Shown: in pieces, positions 1,933 to 17,563 of the stretch
How the letters are laid out: the number at the start of each line of letters is the position of its first letter
How positions within the stretch are numbered: position 1 is the stretch's first letter
From: Actinomycetota bacterium
GTDB taxonomy: Bacteria > Actinomycetota > Humimicrobiia > JAHJRV01
Assembly (NCBI GenBank): GCA_018830725.1
Contig: JAHJRV010000066.1
Location: 1-44,789 of the forward strand
Reading direction: 5' to 3'
Length of the DNA: 44,789 nt
Notes under the pieces: model-generated
Told to the model about the DNA's origin: nothing
Seen by the model: the letters and a program-made list of their open reading frames with translations, nothing else
Databases searched by the model: none
Made by a program: the position numbers and the translations under genes

Positions 1933-2970
1933 ATGGTTAGGAAAAATATAGAAAATGAAATCCTTCAATATGCTCTGGAAGCATTTAAGAAAAATGTCGT
2001 ACTGCCAGTTAATATTGAGAAGGAAGTAGAGGTAACTGTGCAGAATTTAAAAGCAGATAGGCTATTGAGAATGACGGTTCAGGGAACTGAATTACATTTT
2101 TATGCTGAAGTAAAAACTAATATTACAAAAGCTGGAATTGGATTGATTTTGCTTCAAAAAGCTAAATTTCCATATCAAATGTTACTGGTAACCAGGTATG
2201 TTACAGCGCAGATGGCAGAACAGTTAAAACAAGACGATATACAATTTATCGACACAGCTGGGAATACATACATTAATCAACCTCCCTTGTATATTTTTGT
2301 AAAAGGGAATAAACCCCCTGATATTTTCAGGAAAGCTCCTCTCAAACGAGCCTTTAAACCTACAGGGCTAAGAGTGATATATGCTTTTTTGTGCAACCCA
2401 GGTTTAGAAAATAAAACGTATCGCAACATTGCTGAAGTGGCAGACGTGGCACTTGGAACTATTGGCTGGATAATAAGAGATTTGAAGGAGATGGGTTATT
2501 TGCTGGACATGGGAAAGCGGGGTTATAAATTAATCAAGAAGGAAGATCTGTTAAATCGTTGGGTGATAAACTATCCAGAAAAGTTAAGACCAAAGTTAGT
2601 ATTAGGGCATTTTAGGGGTCCTCACGACTGGTGGCAGAAGAAAATTTTAGATCCTATGTACGCACAGTGGGGTGGAGAGGTTGCTGCTGCTAAACTTACA
2701 AAATATCTGAAACCTCAAGTTATTACTATCTATACAACACCACAGCAACTTAATCCTTTGTTGATTGAAAACAGACTTAAAAAAGATCTGGAGGGTGATA
2801 TTGAAATCCTTAATAGATTCTGGACCCCCTTAGAAATGTGGCAATATGAGGATATGGTACATCCGATACTAATTTATGCAGATCTTATGGCAACAGGTAA
2901 CAAAAGAAATATTGAAACCGCAAGGATAATTTATGAAAAATATCTTGTTCGATATATCAGGGAAGATTGA
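1933..2970 (+). CDS. Type IV toxin-antitoxin AbiEi-family antitoxin / transcriptional regulator
   Basis: This 345-residue protein is an AbiEi-family regulator of the long type. The first 130 or so residues form an alpha/beta module with the segment QFIDTAGNTYINQPPLYIFV. A winged helix follows around 145-200 (TYRNIAEVADVALGTIGWI). The C-terminal part has the family signature HPILIYADLMATG and RNIETARIIYEKYL. An AGGGGGGATG ribosome site precedes the ATG. The gene overlaps the following nucleotidyltransferase gene by 38 bases, the usual antitoxin-toxin order. It likely neutralises the partner and represses the operon through the palindromes upstream. The family is clear; the biological trigger is unknown. 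Confidence 0.8.
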   Translation: MVRKNIENEILQYALEAFKKNVVLPVNIEKEVEVTVQNLKADRLLRMTVQGTELHFYAEVKTNITKAGIGLILLQKAKFPYQMLLVTRYVTAQMAEQLKQDDIQFIDTAGNTYINQPPLYIFVKGNKPPDIFRKAPLKRAFKPTGLRVIYAFLCNPGLENKTYRNIAEVADVALGTIGWIIRDLKEMGYLLDMGKRGYKLIKKEDLLNRWVINYPEKLRPKLVLGHFRGPHDWWQKKILDPMYAQWGGEVAAAKLTKYLKPQVITIYTTPQQLNPLLIENRLKKDLEGDIEILNRFWTPLEMWQYEDMVHPILIYADLMATGNKRNIETARIIYEKYLVRYIRED

Positions 2971-3799
2971 GAAGATAGGTCTCAATAAGGTTAATGCCCT
3001 TTATGAGGTTAAAAAGGTAGCTGATTCTCTGAAAATCCCTTTCTTTGTTGTTGGGGCATCAGCCAGGGATTTCATTCTTGAGCATTGCTATAATATAAAA
3101 TCACCTCGAATGACTGAGGATATAGATCTAGGGGTTGAGGTGGCTGACTGGGATAAATTTAATAAATTATCAGAGACTTTACTTTCAACAGGTAAATTCT
3201 CTAAGGCTCCAGAGAAACAAAGATTTCTCTTTAGGGATGTTTTTATTGATATAGTACCATTTGGTCCTATTGCAGGTAAGGATAAAAAAATAAGCTGGCC
3301 ACCTGAACATGAAATATTTATGAATATACTGGGGTTTGAGGAAGCCTATGAGTATTCAATAACTTTAAGACTTGGTTCAAAGCCCGAACTTGATATTAAA
3401 TTTCCTACATTATCGGGCTTGGCAATTATGAAAATAATATCCTGGAAAGAAGAGTACCCTGAGCGCAAAACTGATGCTGAGGATTTATTGTTTATAATGA
3501 AAAATTATGAAGTCGCTGGAAACGAAGAACGGTTGTATGGTCAAGCACTGTCTTTGCTTGAAGAGGAAGATTTTGATACTCGGTTAGCTGGTATTAGATT
3601 GCTTGGAAGGGATATAGCAAAAATATCTGATTCTCAGACCTTAAAAGCTGTCAAAGAAATATTAGAGGGTGAAACTGGAGAACAATCACGCTACAGGTTA
3701 GTTGAAGATATTGTTTCAGTAACTTTTATGTACAGTGATCAATTTGATGAAATATTAAATTATGTAGAAAAATTAAAAGAGGGAATTTCAGAAAAATGA
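2933..3799 (+). CDS. Nucleotidyltransferase, putative toxin partner (AbiEii-like)
   Basis: This 288-residue protein has the minimal nucleotidyltransferase features: VVGASARDFILEH near residue 40, the acidic pair in TEDIDLGVEV near 62-66, and a third acidic residue in VFIDIVPFG near 105. KTDAEDLLFIMKNY near 180 is usual in this group. AAGGA lies 7 bases before the ATG at 2933, inside the end of the antitoxin gene, which supports this start. By family analogy the enzyme would transfer nucleotides to tRNA or another target and stop growth unless balanced by the neighbour. The exact target is not inferable. The start overlaps the antitoxin by 38 bases, so translational coupling is likely. Confidence 0.75.
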   Translation: MKNILFDISGKIEKIGLNKVNALYEVKKVADSLKIPFFVVGASARDFILEHCYNIKSPRMTEDIDLGVEVADWDKFNKLSETLLSTGKFSKAPEKQRFLFRDVFIDIVPFGPIAGKDKKISWPPEHEIFMNILGFEEAYEYSITLRLGSKPELDIKFPTLSGLAIMKIISWKEEYPERKTDAEDLLFIMKNYEVAGNEERLYGQALSLLEEEDFDTRLAGIRLLGRDIAKISDSQTLKAVKEILEGETGEQSRYRLVEDIVSVTFMYSDQFDEILNYVEKLKEGISEK

Positions 3800-3807
3800 A
3801 TTGGAAC

Positions 3808-4245
3808 TTATTTCTCAGATAAAATTTTAATAAGCTGTTTAGGAGATACAATTTTTATCATTTTTACCTTATTTTGTAAACTTAACAAGTGCTTTTTATC
3901 AAGTGTTACTAAAAATTGAGCATCTGCTTCTAAAGCAGAAGCTAAAACATGAGCATCACCATAGTCAATAACTACTTTATAAAAGGATATAACAGTTGAT
4001 TTTTTTGGTGCTGGCAATACTTTTGGGAAAGTAGTGACTATTTTATTGATGGATTTTTTATTAAGTCCAGCCTTATTAATATTGCGTCTTATTTCATCCA
4101 AAATAACTTCACTGATTATTCCTGTAATTTTCTTTTGATTAGCCCATTGAAGCAGTTTTCCAGATCCACCCATAGGAGATTTTAAACCAGCTAAAACTAC
4201 AGAAGCATTAAACAATACATTTGGTACAGATTGTTCTTTACCCAC
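3808..4245 (-). CDS. PIN-domain ribonuclease toxin (VapC-like)
   Basis: This 145-residue PIN-domain protein has the N-terminal strand VLFNASVVLAGL, the middle acidic segment SEVILDEIRRN, and the C-terminal acidic cluster DYGDAHVLASALEADAQFLVTLD. PIN toxins are metal-dependent RNases that cut tRNA, rRNA or mRNA. The first catalytic position, usually aspartate, is asparagine here (residue 13), which may weaken activity. The start is GTG directly after the TAA of the antitoxin and in the same frame. The gene converges with the nucleotidyltransferase gene, whose stop is only a few bases away. Confidence 0.75.
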   Translation of the reverse strand: MGKEQSVPNVLFNASVVLAGLKSPMGGSGKLLQWANQKKITGIISEVILDEIRRNINKAGLNKKSINKIVTTFPKVLPAPKKSTVISFYKVVIDYGDAHVLASALEADAQFLVTLDKKHLLSLQNKVKMIKIVSPKQLIKILSEK

Positions 4246-4503
4246 TTATATTAACCCTTCGTTTTTAAGTTCATTAGTTTCTTTTTTATCTAACTCAAAA
4301 AATTCTTTTAATTCTTGTTTTGTATAACTACGAACTGGATAGGGAAGGGTTCTAACTGGCTCAATTATCAATCGTCCCTTTTCTTTTATTATACGCACTA
4401 AGCTATTTTCTTCAAAATAAGGTTTTTTTCGAAATTTGGCAGGGATTGTTAACAAACCCCTGGATTGAATTTTGACAATCTCCTCCTGTCTATTTTGTAT
4501 CAT
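4246..4503 (-). CDS. AbrB/MazE-type antitoxin (VapB-like)
   Basis: This 85-residue protein has an AbrB-type swapped-hairpin domain over residues 8-50: IVKIQSRGLLTIPAKFR followed by a RIIKEKGRLIIEPV strand pair. The C-terminal tail (KQELKEFFELDKKETNELK) is the acidic, flexible part that normally wraps the toxin. AAAGGAGA precedes the ATG. It forms a pair with the PIN toxin, with no base between them. Such antitoxins bind their own promoter; no clear palindrome was found upstream. Confidence 0.8.
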   Translation of the reverse strand: MIQNRQEEIVKIQSRGLLTIPAKFRKKPYFEENSLVRIIKEKGRLIIEPVRTLPYPVRSYTKQELKEFFELDKKETNELKNEGLI

Positions 4504-12621: not shown

Positions 12622-13023
12622 TTATTCATAATTCTCAAGACGCATAACTGCTTTATTTGTAAGTGGTATATTCCAACTTCCCACAAGTGGTATTTCTATA
12701 GTAATATTATAAGTAATCTCAACTTCTACAGGATCACCAATATTTGTTCCCTCAGGAGTAGTAATAATTATATCATCTTCAGTAATAGGAATTGGGTATG
12801 CTCTTTCAATTATAATGTCTTTAAGGTCAGGATTATTAAGATCTACAGCAGCCCGCCTGGCACCTTCTCTTGCTGCGTGAGTAATAGTAATATAGTTATT
12901 ATATGCTATTCCAAATTGAAATATTCCAAATACCAGCATTATCAATATGGGCAGAATAATAGCAAATTCTACCGCACTGGCGCCTTTTTCATTTTTTATT
13001 ATTCTGATGCTTTTTATTTTCAT
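12622..13023 (-). CDS. tadE: TadE-like minor pseudopilin
   Basis: This 133-residue protein has the TadE pattern: NEKGASAVEFAIILPILIML near residues 11-30, with a glycine before the hydrophobic segment and the conserved glutamate, then FGIAYNNYITITHAAREGARRAA. Prepilin peptidase processes TadE proteins, and they are needed for Flp pilus formation. It stands 76 bases before the tadG-like gene. The IS110 insertion upstream separates it from the pilin genes, so its own promoter or transcription from the element may now drive it. Confidence 0.85.
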   Translation of the reverse strand: MKIKSIRIIKNEKGASAVEFAIILPILIMLVFGIFQFGIAYNNYITITHAAREGARRAAVDLNNPDLKDIIIERAYPIPITEDDIIITTPEGTNIGDPVEVEITYNITIEIPLVGSWNIPLTNKAVMRLENYE

Positions 13024-13130
13024 TGTCTCTTAATTTAATTAGAAATTTATTTATAATTCTAATTATATGAACTATTTAAAAGATGTGTTTACAAACACAT
13101 GTTCTTATACATTGAAAAATATATAACCTT

Positions 13131-13235
13131 GTCATTCTGACCCTGAGTGTAACGAAGGGTAAGAATCTCATTATATTTATCTTTTTAAAAGGAGATTCTT
13201 CACTTCGCTATTGTTTCGTTCAGAATGTACTGTGT
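13131..13235. repeat. REP/MITE-like palindromic element with TCATTCTGA ends
   Basis: A region beginning GTCATTCTGACCCTGAG and containing AAGAATCTCA is mirrored by GGAGATTCTTCACTTCG and TTCGTTCAGAATG, forming a long imperfect inverted repeat of about 100 bases. A related single arm is at 20699-20740. These are common noncoding repeats in bacterial genomes. The element borders the end of the IS110 insertion. A short hairpin (ATGTGTTT/AAACACAT, 13083-13100) lies just left of it. Confidence 0.65.
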
Positions 13236-13267
13236 CAAGATATCAAAATTTTTGAAAATTAAATATA

Positions 13268-14257
13268 TTAACAATAAGCAAAACTTGTAAATTTCTCTTC
13301 ATAATTTGGGTCATATTTCCTATCATACTTTAATACTACAAATATCTGTCTGACTAATTTATTTAATACTGCTACTCTTAATACCTTATGTTCTTTCCCT
13401 TTTAAACTTAATCTTTCATACATATTCCTGCAAGCATTATTATGCTGCATTGCACTAAGTGATGTCATAAATAGTTGCTTTCTTAGATAACTATTACCCT
13501 TTTGACTGATTCTTCCTCTTCCTCTTAAAGAACTACCAGATTCTTTGGGTGAGGGATTAGTTCCTATATAGCTAACTACCTGCTTGCTATTTTTAAAATC
13601 TTCAAATCTACCAAAAAATGCAATAATTATAATAGCTGTTTTAGGACCTACTCCAGAAATTGAAAGCAATCTACTGTACTCATTAAGATAATGCTTATTT
13701 ATTAAATTTTTTAGTTCTTCTTCCAGTCTTTTAATTGAAATATTAAGCTCAGAGATTAATTTGTTAAAACATTCTTCTACTGATCTTTCCTTTAATGGGT
13801 CCTTATCTAAAGCCCCCAAACGATTTAAATAGTTATTTTTAGATACTGTAAGATCTTCTATTGCTTTGAGTATCTTTATTATTCTTTGTCTCTTTTTAGA
13901 TCTTGGTTGAAATAATTTAACATCTTGTTCATAACCGTATTGAGCAATTACTTTTGCATCCACTTTATCTGTTTTTGCACGAAGCATTTTCATCTCTGCA
14001 TATCTTTTAATTATTAGTGGATTAACTACAGATACAAGAAAACCTCTCTCATACAATATATTGGCTAATTGTAAATGATAGATTCCAGTAGCTTCCATAA
14101 CAAACAGTAGATCCTTTTTACCTTTATCATACTTTTTTAAGAATCTTTCAATGTCAGAATTTTTATTTAAGATAACTTTAAGTTTATGATTTTTGCCATC
14201 GTATTCAGAAATATTCAGTTTCTTCTTTGATACATCAGCTCCAATTACTAATTTCAT
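13268..14257 (-). CDS. IS110-family transposase (DEDD)
   Basis: This 329-residue recombinase has the N-terminal RuvC-like DEDD domain: GADVSKKKLNI with the first aspartate at residue 8, the FVMEATGIY glutamate near 55, and KTDKVDAKVIAQYG with the last aspartates near 97-101. A coiled central region follows. The C-terminal Transposase_20 domain is LLSISGVGPKTAIIIIAFFG plus SYIGTNPSPKESG, and a serine in that domain is expected to serve as nucleophile. Length is normal and the frame is intact. GGGAGGAG precedes the ATG. IS110 enzymes work with a noncoding bridge RNA from the element. Confidence 0.92.
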   Translation of the reverse strand: MKLVIGADVSKKKLNISEYDGKNHKLKVILNKNSDIERFLKKYDKGKKDLLFVMEATGIYHLQLANILYERGFLVSVVNPLIIKRYAEMKMLRAKTDKVDAKVIAQYGYEQDVKLFQPRSKKRQRIIKILKAIEDLTVSKNNYLNRLGALDKDPLKERSVEECFNKLISELNISIKRLEEELKNLINKHYLNEYSRLLSISGVGPKTAIIIIAFFGRFEDFKNSKQVVSYIGTNPSPKESGSSLRGRGRISQKGNSYLRKQLFMTSLSAMQHNNACRNMYERLSLKGKEHKVLRVAVLNKLVRQIFVVLKYDRKYDPNYEEKFTSFAYC

Positions 14258-14280
14258 ATTTTTCTCCTCCCTTTTTAGTC

Positions 14281-14432
14281 TGATGTGGAGAGCTATAATC
14301 TATCATCGTAATTTATACAGGCTTTTTAACCTAATGTACTGTTCAGATTTATTAGAGAAGGCGGGTTTAACATTCTGAACGGTCTTTAAAAACCAATGAC
14401 AATGCAAACTTATCCGCCTTCTCTCCACATCA
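14281..14432 (-). ncRNA. Candidate IS110 bridge RNA (noncoding left end)
   Basis: The noncoding end upstream of the transposase has nested pairing on the minus strand. TGATGTGGAGAG (14281-14292) pairs with CTCTCCACATCA (14421-14432). AGAGAAGGCGG (14354-14364) pairs with CCGCCTTCTCT (14414-14424). GTTCAGA (14341-14347) pairs with TCTGAAC (14374-14380). The first two helices share bases, so they would exclude each other. Length, position and orientation fit the bridge RNA of the IS110 group, which lies before the transposase. The pairing is seen directly; the RNA identity is inferred. Confidence 0.6.
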
Positions 14433-14654
14433 ATTTATTTGATACAATTTTATCAATTATGTTAACATAAACACATAATATCAACATACGATGACAAAAA
14501 ATATAAATTAATTCATATTTATATTTTATAAATAGTAAACTGTAAACACCAAGTTTAAATAGTACAAATTATAAAATATTTAACTTAATTTAAAATCTTA
14601 TAGTTACCAGGTAATTCTATTAATTAGAATCACCAGGAGATAATTCAAATAGTA

Positions 14655-14706
14655 ATGTAACCTTCAGCTATAATTAAAGATTGGCTAAGAAACCTGCCTG
14701 TGATGG
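14655..14706 (-). pseudogene. Fragment of a tadG-like 3' end
   Basis: About 55 bases here closely match 11581-11635 within the tadG-like gene, including the shared run TTGGCTAAGAAAC. On the minus strand it would read GRFLSQSLIIAEG, against GTFLSQALVITEG in the intact gene. It lies downstream of the first pilin gene. It is a leftover of a duplication or recombination in the tad locus. Confidence 0.6.
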
Positions 14707-14732
14707 CATTGCAATTTTACAAGCAGGTTTCT
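14688..14732 (-). terminator. Hairpin downstream of the pilin gene (possible attenuator or RNA end)
   Basis: AGAAACCTGC (14688-14697) and GCAGGTTTCT (14723-14732) form a perfect 10-bp stem with a 25-base loop, 30 bases after the pilin stop. No T-run follows, so it is not a classical terminator. It may stabilise the pilin mRNA 3' end or reduce read-through into the rest of the locus. Confidence 0.35.
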
Positions 14733-14762
14733 CATTAACCTCCAGAATTGATAATAAGTACA

Positions 14763-14948
14763 TTAAGGAGTAGCAGTGTCAAGAGCGTCTTTTATATAAG
14801 TGAATACAGCATTTAGCTGTCCACCGAGAGCAGTAACAGTAATAATTATAGCTACAGCAATAAGTGCGACCATAAGAGCATATTCTATGGCAGTTGCCCC
14901 TTCCTCCCTTCTTATATAGGTCATAAGCCACTTGATTAAAAAGCCCAT
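14763..14948 (-). CDS. flp: Flp-type pilin
   Basis: This 61-residue prepilin has a short basic leader (MGFLIKWLMTYIRREEG), then the Flp motif GATAIEYALMVALIAVAIII with the conserved glutamate and tyrosine, a hydrophobic helix and a short polar tail. Cleavage would fall after the glycine of EEG. AAAGGAGGTG, an almost ideal ribosome site, lies 4 bases upstream, in keeping with a major structural subunit. It is the second of two tandem pilin genes. Confidence 0.92.
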   Translation of the reverse strand: MGFLIKWLMTYIRREEGATAIEYALMVALIAVAIIITVTALGGQLNAVFTYIKDALDTATP

Positions 14949-15023
14949 TTTTCACCTCCTTTGATATGAATTTATTTAATTTTTCCATTTTGTCATTGAC
15001 CACCGGAATTGATAAGAGCCTTA

Positions 15024-15203
15024 TTAAGTTCCACCAAGAGAATCTATTATATTTTGGAATACCGTATTTATCTGTCCACCAAGAAGCCCAACAGTAACAA
15101 TTATAGCTACAGCAATAAGTGCAACCATAAGAGCATATTCTATTGCAGTTGCTCCTCTCTCTTTTTTTATAGAGGTCATAAACCATCTAATTAAAGAGCT
15201 CAT
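15024..15203 (-). CDS. flp: Flp-type pilin, second copy
   Basis: This 59-residue prepilin starts at ATG 15201-15203 behind AGAGGCG and ends in TAA at 15024-15026. The leader MSSLIRWFMTSIKKERG is followed by GATAIEYALMVALIAVAII, identical in the helix core to the neighbour. The two genes and their 3' flanks are alike, pointing to tandem duplication. It is the first gene after the riboswitch-terminator leader and should respond to it directly. No prepilin peptidase gene is present in the window. Confidence 0.88.
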   Translation of the reverse strand: MSSLIRWFMTSIKKERGATAIEYALMVALIAVAIIVTVGLLGGQINTVFQNIIDSLGGT

Positions 15204-15349
15204 TTATCGCCTCTTTTTTCTAAATTTTAATTTTTTCAATTTTTTATTTAGATTTATCAAAGATGCAGACATTAATCTCCTTTTAGTTAATTATTAAAAT
15301 TACTAAAAAATTTTATTAATTAATTTTTTAATCTTTATTATCTCTTCTT

Positions 15350-15398
15350 AAAAAAATAAAAACCGGCTAAAAATTATTTGATGTTTTTAAGGCCGGTT
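15350..15398 (-). terminator. Intrinsic terminator of the gene-proximal c-di-GMP-II riboswitch
   Basis: On the minus strand, AACCGGC (complement of 15392-15398) pairs with GCCGGTT (complement of 15361-15367). The stem is extended by an A-run/T-run pairing and followed by a T-rich tail (15350-15360). The 5' arm contains the ACCGGC that ends the aptamer core, so aptamer folding and terminator folding compete. Confidence 0.75.
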
Positions 15399-15459
15399 GT
15401 ACCATAAGCTCTATGAGATATAAGTACCCAGATTAAATCCCACTTCAAAGCTTCCTTAA
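15387..15459 (-). ncRNA. c-di-GMP-II riboswitch, gene-proximal copy
   Basis: Read on the minus strand, the core runs TGGGATTTAATCTGGGTAC, then CTTATATCTC, then AGAGCTTATGGTACAACCGG. This matches the class II cyclic di-GMP aptamer as I recall it (UUGGGCACUU ... AGUUAGUAGUGCAACCGACC), with GGGTAC pairing to GTACAACC. A closing helix TTAAGG/CCTTAA (15454-15459 with 15387-15392) encloses it. The pilin ATG lies about 180 bases downstream. Because the closing helix and core overlap the terminator arm, ligand binding should favour read-through (an ON switch). That logic is inferred. Confidence 0.85.
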
Positions 15460-15652
15460 TTTTTTTCTTATATTTAGTTTTTATATATATCATCTTTTTA
15501 TAAAAAAAGCAAGAATTTTTTTAAAAAATTTTCAAACCAAAATAGAATATTATCATTTTTTTTCTAAATTTTTTGACAGTTATATTAATTTGCATTTCCT
15601 CCTATACAGTTACTTTCCAATAAACCATATATATTATTAAATTGGATTTTTT

Positions 15653-15690
15653 AGTCGGGTACGCTATTAGCTCCACCTTCCTCAAGCATC
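15653..15690 (-). other. Degenerate c-di-GMP-II-like sequence between the two riboswitches
   Basis: The minus strand reads GATGCTTGAGG, a short spacer, then GGAGCTAATAGCGTACCCG. It resembles the 3' half of the class II aptamer (AGCTAGTAGTGCAACCGG), and ATGC could pair with GCGT. The TTGGG segment is missing. A decayed third copy or chance similarity are both possible. Confidence 0.3.
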
Positions 15691-15719
15691 TACTTTTGAG
15701 AAAATTTTTTTAGATTATA

Positions 15720-15748
15720 AGTATAAAATATTAATTTAATAATATCAA
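15720..15748 (-). promoter_or_regulatory. Candidate sigma-70 type promoter for the pilin leader
   Basis: On the minus strand TTGATA (15743-15748) is followed after 17 bases by TATACT (15720-15725). Transcription would enter the gene-proximal riboswitch about 255 bases downstream and then the pilin genes. Confidence 0.45.
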
Positions 15749-15850
15749 ATTCTCAAATTGGATTATTTTATTTAATTTGAATTTATAAAACAAAGAACTT
15801 TTTCTTATAGAGGCTAAAGAGTCAGTATTATCAATAAAAATTGATTAGAG

Positions 15851-15885
15851 AATAAAAAAGCCATTTAGTTTAGAGGCTAAATGGC
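15851..15885 (-). terminator. Intrinsic terminator of the distal c-di-GMP-II riboswitch
   Basis: On the minus strand GCCATTTAG (complement of 15877-15885) and CTAAATGGC (complement of 15860-15868) form a perfect 9-bp stem with an 8-base loop, followed by TTTTTTATT. Part of its 5' arm and loop (15872-15879) is complementary to the first bases of the riboswitch. Confidence 0.85.
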
Positions 15886-15966
15886 AATTATTTAAAAATA
15901 GCCGGTTGCACTACTAGCTCTTCACACCCTAAGTGCCCAAATTACTGGATGTGATTCATAGCCTCT
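15872..15966 (-). ncRNA. c-di-GMP-II riboswitch, distal copy
   Basis: On the minus strand the core is CAGTAATTTGGGCACTTAGG followed by AGAGCTAGTAGTGCAACCGG, almost the textbook class II cyclic di-GMP aptamer. The closing helix is AGAGGCTA (complement of 15959-15966) with TAGCCTCT (complement of 15872-15879). The second strand overlaps the terminator hairpin, so a folded, ligand-bound aptamer should prevent termination. A promoter lies about 60 bases upstream. No intact gene lies between this terminator and the second riboswitch. Confidence 0.9.
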
Positions 15967-16026
15967 ATTTCTAATAAGTTATTTCTATTAATTTTTAAAA
16001 GAACAATTTAATTTAAAATTAGAGTT

Positions 16027-16054
16027 ATTATAACATATTTTTTCTAATTGTAAA
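16027..16054 (-). promoter_or_regulatory. Promoter of the distal riboswitch transcript
   Basis: On the minus strand TTTACA (16049-16054) and TATAAT (16027-16032) are spaced by 16 bases. The start would lie near 16020, about 50 bases before the distal aptamer. Confidence 0.6.
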
Positions 16055-16173
16055 GTATTTTTATAAAAATTTTTTAAATTTTTTATAAATTTTATCTATT
16101 TTATAAAAATTTCTAATATCTAAAGCCTTAATATTATATATTATTAATATTAAATCTTAATTTCAGATTTAAA

Positions 16174-17563
16174 GGGACTGTGTTATATTTTCTGTAAAAT
16201 TGATCTTTGAAAATTTGAATGGGTCATCAAAATCCTTCATAATGTTTAAAAAACATTTAAAAAGGAGGTAACCAGATGACCCAAGTAAATATTACTAAAT
16301 TAAAAGAAATTTATCAAGAAGCAGTAGAAAAAGATTCTGATTTTATGAAGAAACTTTCAAACTACATACTGCAGAAAGTAATGGAAATGGAAAGAGATGA
16401 ACAGATTGGTGTTAAAGAGTACATAAGAGATGAAAAACAAAGAAAAGGAAGTAGAAATGGATACAAAAAGAGAACTTTTAATACTAGATTAGGTAAGATG
16501 GAGTTATTAAAGCCCCAGATAAGGGAATTTCCCTTTAATACAAATGTGTTTGAATATTATCAGAGAAGTGAGAAGGCATTGATGTTAACAATTCAACAGA
16601 TGGTGATAGATGGAGTATCTACAAATAAGGTGAAAAAGATAATAGGCAAGCTATCATCTGATTTAAGTTTTTCTAAATCAACAGTTTCAAGACTAATGAA
16701 AGAGCTAGATCCTATGATAAAGTCCTGGCGTAATGAGAAATTAAGTAAAAATTATGCTTACATTATTCCAGATGCTTGTTACTTTTATGTAAGAGAAAAC
16801 AGTTCTGTTGTAAAAAGACCTCTATTAATTAGTGTGGCAGTAGATATGACCGGTTATAGGAAGATATTAGGAGTAGATATGAAAATTGATGAGAGTGAAG
16901 AGTCCTTAAAGAGAACATATATTAAGTCTTAAAGAAAGAGGACTAAAAACAGTAAATCTTACTACATCAGATAATAATAAGGGACTAGTTAAAGTACTTA
17001 CTGAAGAGTTTGCAGGAACTGCCCATCAAAGATGTATGGTTCATTTTGAGAGAAATTTATTATCTTATGTACCTGCAAAGGAAAGAAAGCTGTTGAGTAA
17101 ATACATAAAGGCAATATATAGTTGCCCTAATAAAGAGATGGCATTAAAGATAGCAAATTTAATATCAGATAAATACAGAAATATTTATCCTAAGCTATCA
17201 AAACTTTTAGATGAAAATGTAGAAGAAACATTAACATTTTACAGTTATCCAGAAAATCATCACAGAAAGATTAGAACTACTAATATAATAGAAGGAACTC
17301 TAAATTCTATGTTAAAGAGACGTTCTAGAGTTGTTGGCATATTTCCAAACAGAGAATCGTGTATTAGATATGCTTGCTCTCTACTTATGGAAATAGATGA
17401 GGAATGGCAAACTAATAGAAGATATATGAGAATGCTAAAAGAAGATGAAAATTTAGATGTTGATGAATATTTCATGAGAGAGATAAATGACATAAGAAAT
17501 GAAATAAAAAAAGAGAAGGAGTTGGTGACTCTTTGAATTTTACAGAAAAATTGGGATTGACTC
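16174..17563 (+). mobile_element. IS256-family insertion sequence, degenerate
   Basis: The transposase remnant at 16276-17536 is flanked by imperfect terminal inverted repeats. The left end is GGGACTGTGTTATATTTTCT and continues GTAAAATT (16174-16201). The right end, read inward, begins GAGTCAATCCCAA and ends TTTTCTGTAAAATT (17536-17563). The inner 14 bases agree exactly; the outer right half has drifted. The length is usual for the family. Flanks share an ATTTAAA run that might be a target duplication, but AT-richness weakens this. Confidence 0.7.
16276..17536 (+). pseudogene. IS256-family transposase, frameshifted
   Basis: The first frame (16276-16932, 218 codons) holds the N-terminal part, with NGYKKRTFNTRLGKMEL, and the first catalytic aspartate in IIPDACYFYVRE. 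It breaks after ESEESLKRTYIKS. The continuation starts in another frame with EHILSLKERGLKTVNL near 16911, has the second aspartate in TTSDNNKGL and the AHQRCMVHFERNLL segment, and the final glutamate in TTNIIEGTLNSMLKRR, ending at 17536. A one-base shift near 16900-16912 separates the halves. All three catalytic residues remain in the sequence, so the damage is recent or an assembly error. AAAGGAGGTAACC precedes the start. Confidence 0.85.

What the first reader, a model, noticed from the sequence alone, without database searches (positions are those of the whole stretch)
15350..16054. Two consecutive c-di-GMP-II riboswitches, each with its own terminator, upstream of duplicated Flp pilin genes
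Both minus-strand aptamers carry the class II core (GGGYAC ... GTRCAACCGG), a closing helix, and an overlapping intrinsic terminator. In both, the closing helix uses bases needed by the terminator, predicting that cyclic di-GMP turns transcription on. Two promoters are visible, one before each copy. Class II riboswitches are known to control type IV pili in clostridia; a double one on a Tad pilus would be a new arrangement giving a steep or staged response.
Basis: partly seen in the sequence, partly recalled or inferred. Interest (0 to 1): 0.85.

Follow-up and report, generated by a model that had tools for sequence, protein, structure and literature searches.

The report
Opposed c-di-GMP riboswitches before pilin genes
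Two RNA sensors for the bacterial signal cyclic di-GMP lie one after the other before a pair of pilus genes, but comparison with relatives predicts that the first switches genes off and the second switches the pilus genes on, so they are probably two unrelated switches placed side by side, not one double switch.

Summary
Both minus-strand sites pass Rfam's c-di-GMP-II threshold (82.2 and 57.8 bits; cut-off 53.5), each has a promoter and a terminator, and two 81%-identical Flp pilin genes follow.

Copy 2 is a standard ON switch: its terminator's 5' arm is the aptamer's own AACCGGC. Sites of this type precede Flp genes in three other genera of the class.

In copy 1 the terminator does not overlap the closing helix. 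The aptamer's 5' strand (UAGAGGCUA) is instead complementary to the terminator's 5' arm and loop (UAGCCUCUA). This complement recurs across the class while the terminator stems change. It predicts an OFF switch. In relatives this type controls secreted CAP-domain proteins (19 of 20 tested). No CAP gene was found in the four genomes of the window's genus, and in a congener copy 1 sits ~500 nt before a diguanylate-cyclase gene.

Between the copies lies a third, 5'-truncated ON-type aptamer. The simplest reading is two independent transcription units of opposite sign, brought together by rearrangement. Tandem c-di-GMP-II riboswitches are already published; the class-wide OFF-type c-di-GMP-II platform is the newer part. 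Nothing here was tested at the bench.

The parts
16027..16054 (-). Promoter of copy 1 (TTTACA-16-TATAAT with extended -10 TG)
   Evidence: 11 of 12 consensus matches; conserved in G003 C76 as TTGACA...TGTTATAAT
15891..15975 (-). Copy 1: c-di-GMP-II aptamer, OFF type ('type A')
   Evidence: RF01786 82.2 bits; type A profile E 3.3e-19
15959..15967 (-). Segment A, UAGAGGCUA: inner P1 plus P2 5' strand, predicted antiterminator arm
   Evidence: Complement recurs downstream in 26 of 30 type A sites versus 2 of 49 type B
15871..15879 (-). Segment B1, UAGCCUCUA in the terminator 5' arm and loop
   Evidence: 9-bp perfect complement of A; 6 of 3000 dinucleotide shuffles reach the observed score; GCCUC conserved while stems vary
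15854..15885 (-). Terminator of copy 1 (GCCATTTAG-CCTCTAAA-CTAAATGGC plus T tract)
   Evidence: Terminator scan; identical in G003
15808..15816 (-). Segment B2, second copy of UAGCCUCUA
   Evidence: Conserved in G003, where it is complementary to the Shine-Dalgarno of a small ORF (-18.2 kcal/mol, 0 of 1000 shuffles); no such pairing is evident in the window
15649..15704 (-). Relic of a third aptamer, ON type, lacking its 5' strand
   Evidence: nhmmer with type B profile E 2.6e-8, model 24-79 of 84; Rfam only 19.3 bits
15521..15595 (-). Possible 24-aa remnant ORF (MQINITVKKFRKK...) behind AGGAGG
   Evidence: Read from the sequence; weak, start only 2 nt from AGGAGG
15484..15512 (-). Promoter of copy 2 (TTGCTT-17-TATATA)
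   Evidence: Read from the sequence; aligned with the promoters of related type B sites
15382..15464 (-). Copy 2: c-di-GMP-II aptamer, ON type ('type B')
   Evidence: RF01786 57.8 bits; pseudoknot GUAC/GUAC covaries with GCAC/GUGC of copy 1 and GUAU/AUAC of L014
15351..15398 (-). Terminator of copy 2; 5' arm AACCGGC (15398-15392) lies inside the aptamer
   Evidence: AACCGGC/GCCGGUU; terminator fold 5.4 kcal/mol below the ligand-free aptamer fold
15204..15272 (-). Conserved small leader ORF MSASLINLNKKLKKLKFRKKRR, stop abutting the first flp start
   Evidence: Same leader motif at three other type B loci in congeners
15024..15203 (-). Flp pilin gene 1 (59 aa)
   Evidence: PF04964 E 8.1e-16
14763..14948 (-). 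Flp pilin gene 2 (61 aa)
   Evidence: PF04964 E 1.9e-16; 81% identical 183-nt repeat of gene 1

Best explanation
Two complete c-di-GMP-II riboswitches of opposite predicted sign stand in series as separate transcription units. Copy 2 (ON): without c-di-GMP the AACCGGC of the aptamer core is taken by the terminator and transcription stops; c-di-GMP holds it in the aptamer and RNA polymerase reads into the leader ORF and the flp pilin genes. Copy 1 (OFF): without c-di-GMP the aptamer's 5' strand A pairs with B1 and prevents the terminator; c-di-GMP locks A into P1/P2, B1 is released, the terminator forms and transcription stops. Copy 1 belongs to a class-wide OFF family that in other genera controls secreted CAP proteins. 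In this lineage it has lost that target and appears to have been moved next to a duplicated or decayed ON-type array before flp. The pilins are therefore probably controlled by copy 2 and its own promoter, with copy 1 a bystander or insulator. Shown: sequence identity, conservation, mutually exclusive folds, target genes. Inferred: ligand binding, polarity, independence and the rearrangement.
For: Rfam scores. The 5'-strand complement is enriched downstream of type A sites (22 of 30 at p<=0.05; type B 3 of 49), and the 3'-core complement downstream of type B sites (22 of 49; type A 4 of 30). GCCUC is nearly invariant in type A although the terminator stems differ, with one compensatory change GAGG/CCUC to GGGG/CCCC. 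Copy 1: antiterminator favoured by 10.5 kcal/mol when the RNA ends at B1 and equal once the terminator is complete; 29 of 30 type A sites favour the antiterminator at that point. In three type A sites without a terminator, a hairpin including B covers the ribosome-binding site and start codon, again an OFF layout. Targets: CAP in 19 of 20 type A; Flp, SpaA adhesins, camelysin and GGDEF-HD among type B. Type B stands before flp in G022, G139 and G074. CAP was not found in the genus. The copy 1 homologue lies before a GAF-GGDEF gene in G003, while the own-genome homologue of that gene is on another contig whose end falls in the matching region. Truncated relic between the copies.
Against: No binding, termination or expression data. 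Vienna energies omit the pseudoknot and ligand. Conservation of GCCUC may partly reflect common descent. The strong promoter of copy 1 and its intact, conserved anatomy sit awkwardly with a useless bystander. The juxtaposition is seen in one contig of one fragmented genome only.
Confidence: 0.62

Rival explanations
1. One reading: both copies are ON switches in one leader, giving a steeper or staged c-di-GMP response of the pilin genes.
For: Two aptamers and two terminators before flp; ON-ON c-di-GMP-II tandems are published (PMC9481103) and candidate pairs occur elsewhere in the phylum (G005 C22, G048 C201).
Against: Copy 1's terminator does not overlap the P1 3' strand; its conserved alternative helix uses the 5' strand. 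Copy 2 has its own promoter. The middle aptamer, and the first copy of the ON-ON pair in G003 C70, look decayed, which argues against selection for arrays here.
Confidence: 0.12
2. Band-pass device: transcripts from the copy 1 promoter pass the OFF switch only at low, and the ON switch only at high, c-di-GMP, so they reach flp only at intermediate levels.
For: Opposite predicted signs in series on one strand with nothing but a relic between them; the copy 1 promoter is the stronger consensus match.
Against: The copy 2 promoter is conserved and would bypass the gate; the arrangement is seen only in this genome; no other A-B pair was found in the same orientation.
Confidence: 0.12
3. Copy 1 is still a working switch for something else: a feedback leader of the diguanylate cyclase gene or a small regulatory RNA, and its position before flp is incidental or an assembly join.
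For: In G003 the homologue lies about 500 nt before a GAF-GGDEF gene, with B2 able to mask a small ORF's ribosome-binding site; the own-genome cyclase contig ends in the matching region; promoter, aptamer, terminator and B2 are conserved.
Against: No read data to show a misjoin; in the window there is no cyclase gene downstream; the cyclase may have its own promoter.
Confidence: 0.14

Closest known systems
c-di-GMP-II riboswitch (Rfam RF01786); C. difficile Cdi2_4 before the pilA1 type IV pilus operon (PMC6200980, PMC11477304)
   Same: Aptamer family; copy 2 is predicted to be a transcriptional ON switch for pilin genes, with the terminator overlapping the aptamer core.
   Different: Here the pilins are Flp/Tad. 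C. difficile class II switches are reported as uniformly ON, while copy 1 and its family are predicted OFF.
Tandem c-di-GMP-II riboswitches (59 doublets, 9 triplets, mostly Paraclostridium COG4932 genes; PMC9481103)
   Same: Two or more complete c-di-GMP-II riboswitches in series.
   Different: Those are described as pseudo-cooperative, acting in one direction; here the two have opposite predicted signs and separate promoters.
Bacillus thuringiensis Bc1 c-di-GMP-I riboswitch with a long two-terminator platform (PMC11218506)
   Same: Long platform with repeated regulatory elements after one aptamer, a parallel to B1 and B2 after copy 1.
   Different: Different aptamer class and sequence; only the start of its abstract was consulted.

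Membership tests
c-di-GMP-II riboswitch (RF01786), copy 1 | Covariance score above gathering threshold, full length | tested here: met
   82.2 bits, model 1-84
c-di-GMP-II riboswitch (RF01786), copy 2 | Covariance score above gathering threshold, full length | tested here: met
   57.8 bits, model 1-84
c-di-GMP-II riboswitch (RF01786), copies 1 and 2 | Conserved pseudoknot GGGYAC ... GTRCAACCGG | tested here: met
   GCAC/GUGC in copy 1, GUAC/GUAC in copy 2, read
c-di-GMP-II riboswitch (RF01786), copies 1 and 2 | Binding of c-di-GMP | not testable with these tools
   Needs in-line probing
c-di-GMP-II riboswitch (RF01786), middle element 15704-15649 | Covariance score above gathering threshold with all helices | tested here: not met
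   19.3 bits; 5' strand missing
ON-type transcriptional platform, copy 2 | Terminator 5' arm overlaps the aptamer 3' core | tested here: met
   AACCGGC shared
ON-type transcriptional platform, copy 1 | Terminator 5' arm overlaps the aptamer 3' core | tested here: not met
   P1 ends 15891, terminator starts 15885; both form in one fold
OFF-type platform, copy 1 | Ligand-free antiterminator pairing the aptamer with the terminator, exclusive with both | tested here: met
   Helix A:B1, energies and class conservation; functional test not done
Pseudo-cooperative tandem riboswitch | Two complete riboswitches of the same direction controlling one ORF | tested here: not met
   Opposite predicted signs; separate promoters

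The most novel reading that the evidence does not exclude
A natural single-ligand band-pass leader: an OFF-type and an ON-type c-di-GMP-II riboswitch in series, so that pilin transcripts from the upstream promoter are made only at intermediate c-di-GMP.
Probability: 0.1. Interest if true: 0.85.

Novelty: new variant of a known kind. Interest (0 to 1): 0.55.

Why it matters
Characterised class II c-di-GMP riboswitches in C. difficile are all ON switches (PMC6200980). Here a whole bacterial class carries two c-di-GMP-II families whose platforms predict opposite signs: ON for pili and adhesins, OFF for secreted CAP proteins. One aptamer family would thus drive attached and free-living programmes in opposite directions. 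The conserved antiterminator makes this directly testable in a tube. The window itself is a caution that neighbouring riboswitches need not form one device.

Tried and rejected
Group I intron or other ribozyme after copy 1 (as in C. difficile): no Rfam match in 13000-16700 even at permissive threshold. A third working aptamer: the middle element lacks its 5' strand and scores 19.3 bits. B2 as a translational control in the window: pairing with the small ORF's ribosome-binding site is no better than shuffles. Orthologous flp locus in congeners to check the junction: the G001 CpaF orthologue (93%) lies on a 3.2-kb contig without flp and a DNA search found no orthologous flp region. Papers on c-di-GMP riboswitches before Tad pili: none found in the held library.

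Full report
Observation. Rfam c-di-GMP-II matches lie at 15975-15891(-) (82.2 bits) and 15464-15382(-) (57.8 bits), both full length and above the gathering score of 53.5. The whole genome (1.44 Mb, 171 contigs) holds only one other site, on contig C96, and a single GGDEF gene. The window is the entire contig C66. The downstream genes are two Flp pilins, an IS110 transposase, then TadE, a TadG-like protein, RcpC/CpaB, a CpaE-like ATPase, CpaF and two TadB/TadC-like proteins. The two flp genes are a tandem duplication, 183 nt at 81% identity.

Copy 2. The aptamer ends ...GGUACAACCGGCCUUAA and the terminator is AACCGGC...GCCGGUUUUUAUUUUUU, so its 5' arm lies inside the aptamer. Without ligand or pseudoknot, the terminator fold is 5.4 kcal/mol below the aptamer fold. 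This is the usual ON layout. The promoter, aptamer and terminator align with other type B sites of the genus. The transcript first carries a small ORF, MSASLINLNKKLKKLKFRKKRR, whose stop abuts the first flp start; the same leader motif occurs at three more type B loci of congeners, before unrelated genes, and nowhere else in the four genomes at up to two mismatches.

Copy 1. The P1 3' strand ends at 15891 and the terminator hairpin starts at 15885; aptamer P1 and terminator are both present in the minimum-energy fold. The aptamer's 5' strand UAGAGGCUA (15967-15959) is instead a perfect complement of UAGCCUCUA (15879-15871) in the terminator's 5' arm and loop; only 6 of 3000 dinucleotide shuffles of the next 60 nt match it as well. 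When the RNA ends at that point, the A:B1 antiterminator is 10.5 kcal/mol better than the aptamer helices; once the terminator is complete the two states are equal. This is the energetic shape of a switch in which ligand binding causes termination.

Comparison across the class. I collected 79 c-di-GMP-II sites, mostly from the class (31 of whose 40 genomes have a match), plus some from the phylum. By aptamer sequence alone they split into type A (30, with copy 1) and type B (49, with copy 2). GCCTC occurs within 130 nt downstream in 26 of 30 type A and 2 of 49 type B sites. Shuffle tests give a 5'-strand complement in 22 of 30 type A against 3 of 49 type B, and a 3'-core complement in 22 of 49 type B against 4 of 30 type A. 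In type A the GCCUC block is nearly invariant while the terminator stems change (GCCAUUUAG, GCCAUCCAG, GCCGUCCGG and others), and one site shows the compensatory pair GGGG/CCCC. In 29 of 30 type A sites the antiterminator is favoured before the terminator is finished. Three type A sites have no terminator; there a hairpin containing B masks the ribosome-binding site and start codon. Both versions predict repression by c-di-GMP.

Targets. Nineteen of 20 type A downstream genes tested encode CAP (PF00188) secreted proteins. Type B precedes Flp pilins, SpaA-type surface proteins, a camelysin-like protein and a GGDEF-HD protein. Of nine well-scoring Flp loci in the class, four, including the window, have a full type B site upstream and one (G267) a weak partial match. 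An ON-type c-di-GMP-II riboswitch before Flp pilins is therefore shared across genera.

History of the pair. No CAP gene was found in the four genomes of the genus, so copy 1 appears to have lost its usual target. In G003 its homologue, with promoter, terminator and B2 conserved, lies before a 54-aa ORF and, about 500 nt on, a GAF-GAF-GAF-GGDEF gene. In the window's genome the homologue of that cyclase gene sits on contig C125, whose end falls inside the remnant of that small ORF. Homology between window and G003 stops at 15766. Shortly after it, at 15704-15649, is a type B aptamer lacking its 5' strand (E 2.6e-8). A second ON-ON pair, in G003 C70, also has a degraded first copy (Rfam did not report it; nhmmer E 0.007; pseudoknot GGGUAA). 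I infer that a fragment carrying copy 1 was joined to a decaying type B array. No orthologous flp locus was found in congeners, so the junction rests on one contig and a misassembly is not excluded.

How it works. Copy 2 with its own promoter most likely gives c-di-GMP-induced pilin expression. Copy 1 most likely gives a transcript that is terminated when c-di-GMP is high. In series, any transcript from the copy 1 promoter must pass an OFF and then an ON switch, so it would contribute little except at intermediate c-di-GMP; this band-pass is the most novel reading not excluded.

Relation to what is known. Tandem c-di-GMP-II riboswitches are published (59 doublets, 9 triplets; PMC9481103). Class II switches in C. 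difficile are uniformly ON, including one before the type IV pilus operon (PMC6200980, PMC11477304). I found no report in the held papers of an OFF-type c-di-GMP-II family or of this aptamer before Tad/Flp pilins, but the library is incomplete.

Noticed in passing
window 13227-14491 (-): An IS110-type element (DEDD transposase 13268-14257, long non-coding end to about 14490 with apparent hairpins, where a bridge RNA would be expected) is inserted in a dispersed repeat whose two halves lie next to each other at several places in congeners; it separates flp from tadE.
   Followed up: partly
window 15272-15204 (-); G002 C112, G002 C116, G003 C70: Conserved basic leader peptide MSxxLINLN... between type B riboswitches and different downstream genes, possibly for translational coupling.
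   Followed up: partly
L014 about 3190-3450; L010 10578-10850: Third c-di-GMP-II site, behind a dinB-like gene, followed by a conserved short hydrophobic ORF (MKKLYRVLLLLSSLIGVCSCVRW in the own genome).
   Followed up: no
L009 530-3131: Predicted OFF-type c-di-GMP-II riboswitch upstream of a GAF-GGDEF diguanylate cyclase gene: a possible negative feedback on c-di-GMP synthesis.
   Followed up: partly
L164 2244-4322; L166 186-2267: Type B riboswitch directly before a 7TM-PAS-GGDEF-HD gene (Pfam-tested in L164; the L166 protein is near-identical by eye), a possible c-di-GMP feedback loop.
   Followed up: no
L162 1602-1937; L163 3710-3899: Tandem type B pairs (start spacing about 260 and 115 nt) elsewhere in the phylum.
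   Followed up: no
window 16276-17536 (+): Mutator/IS256-family transposase split into two ORFs, just upstream of the copy 1 promoter.
   Followed up: no
window 1933-4503: Probable AbiEi/AbiEii-type toxin-antitoxin pair and a PIN/MazE-like pair next to the Tad locus.
   Followed up: no
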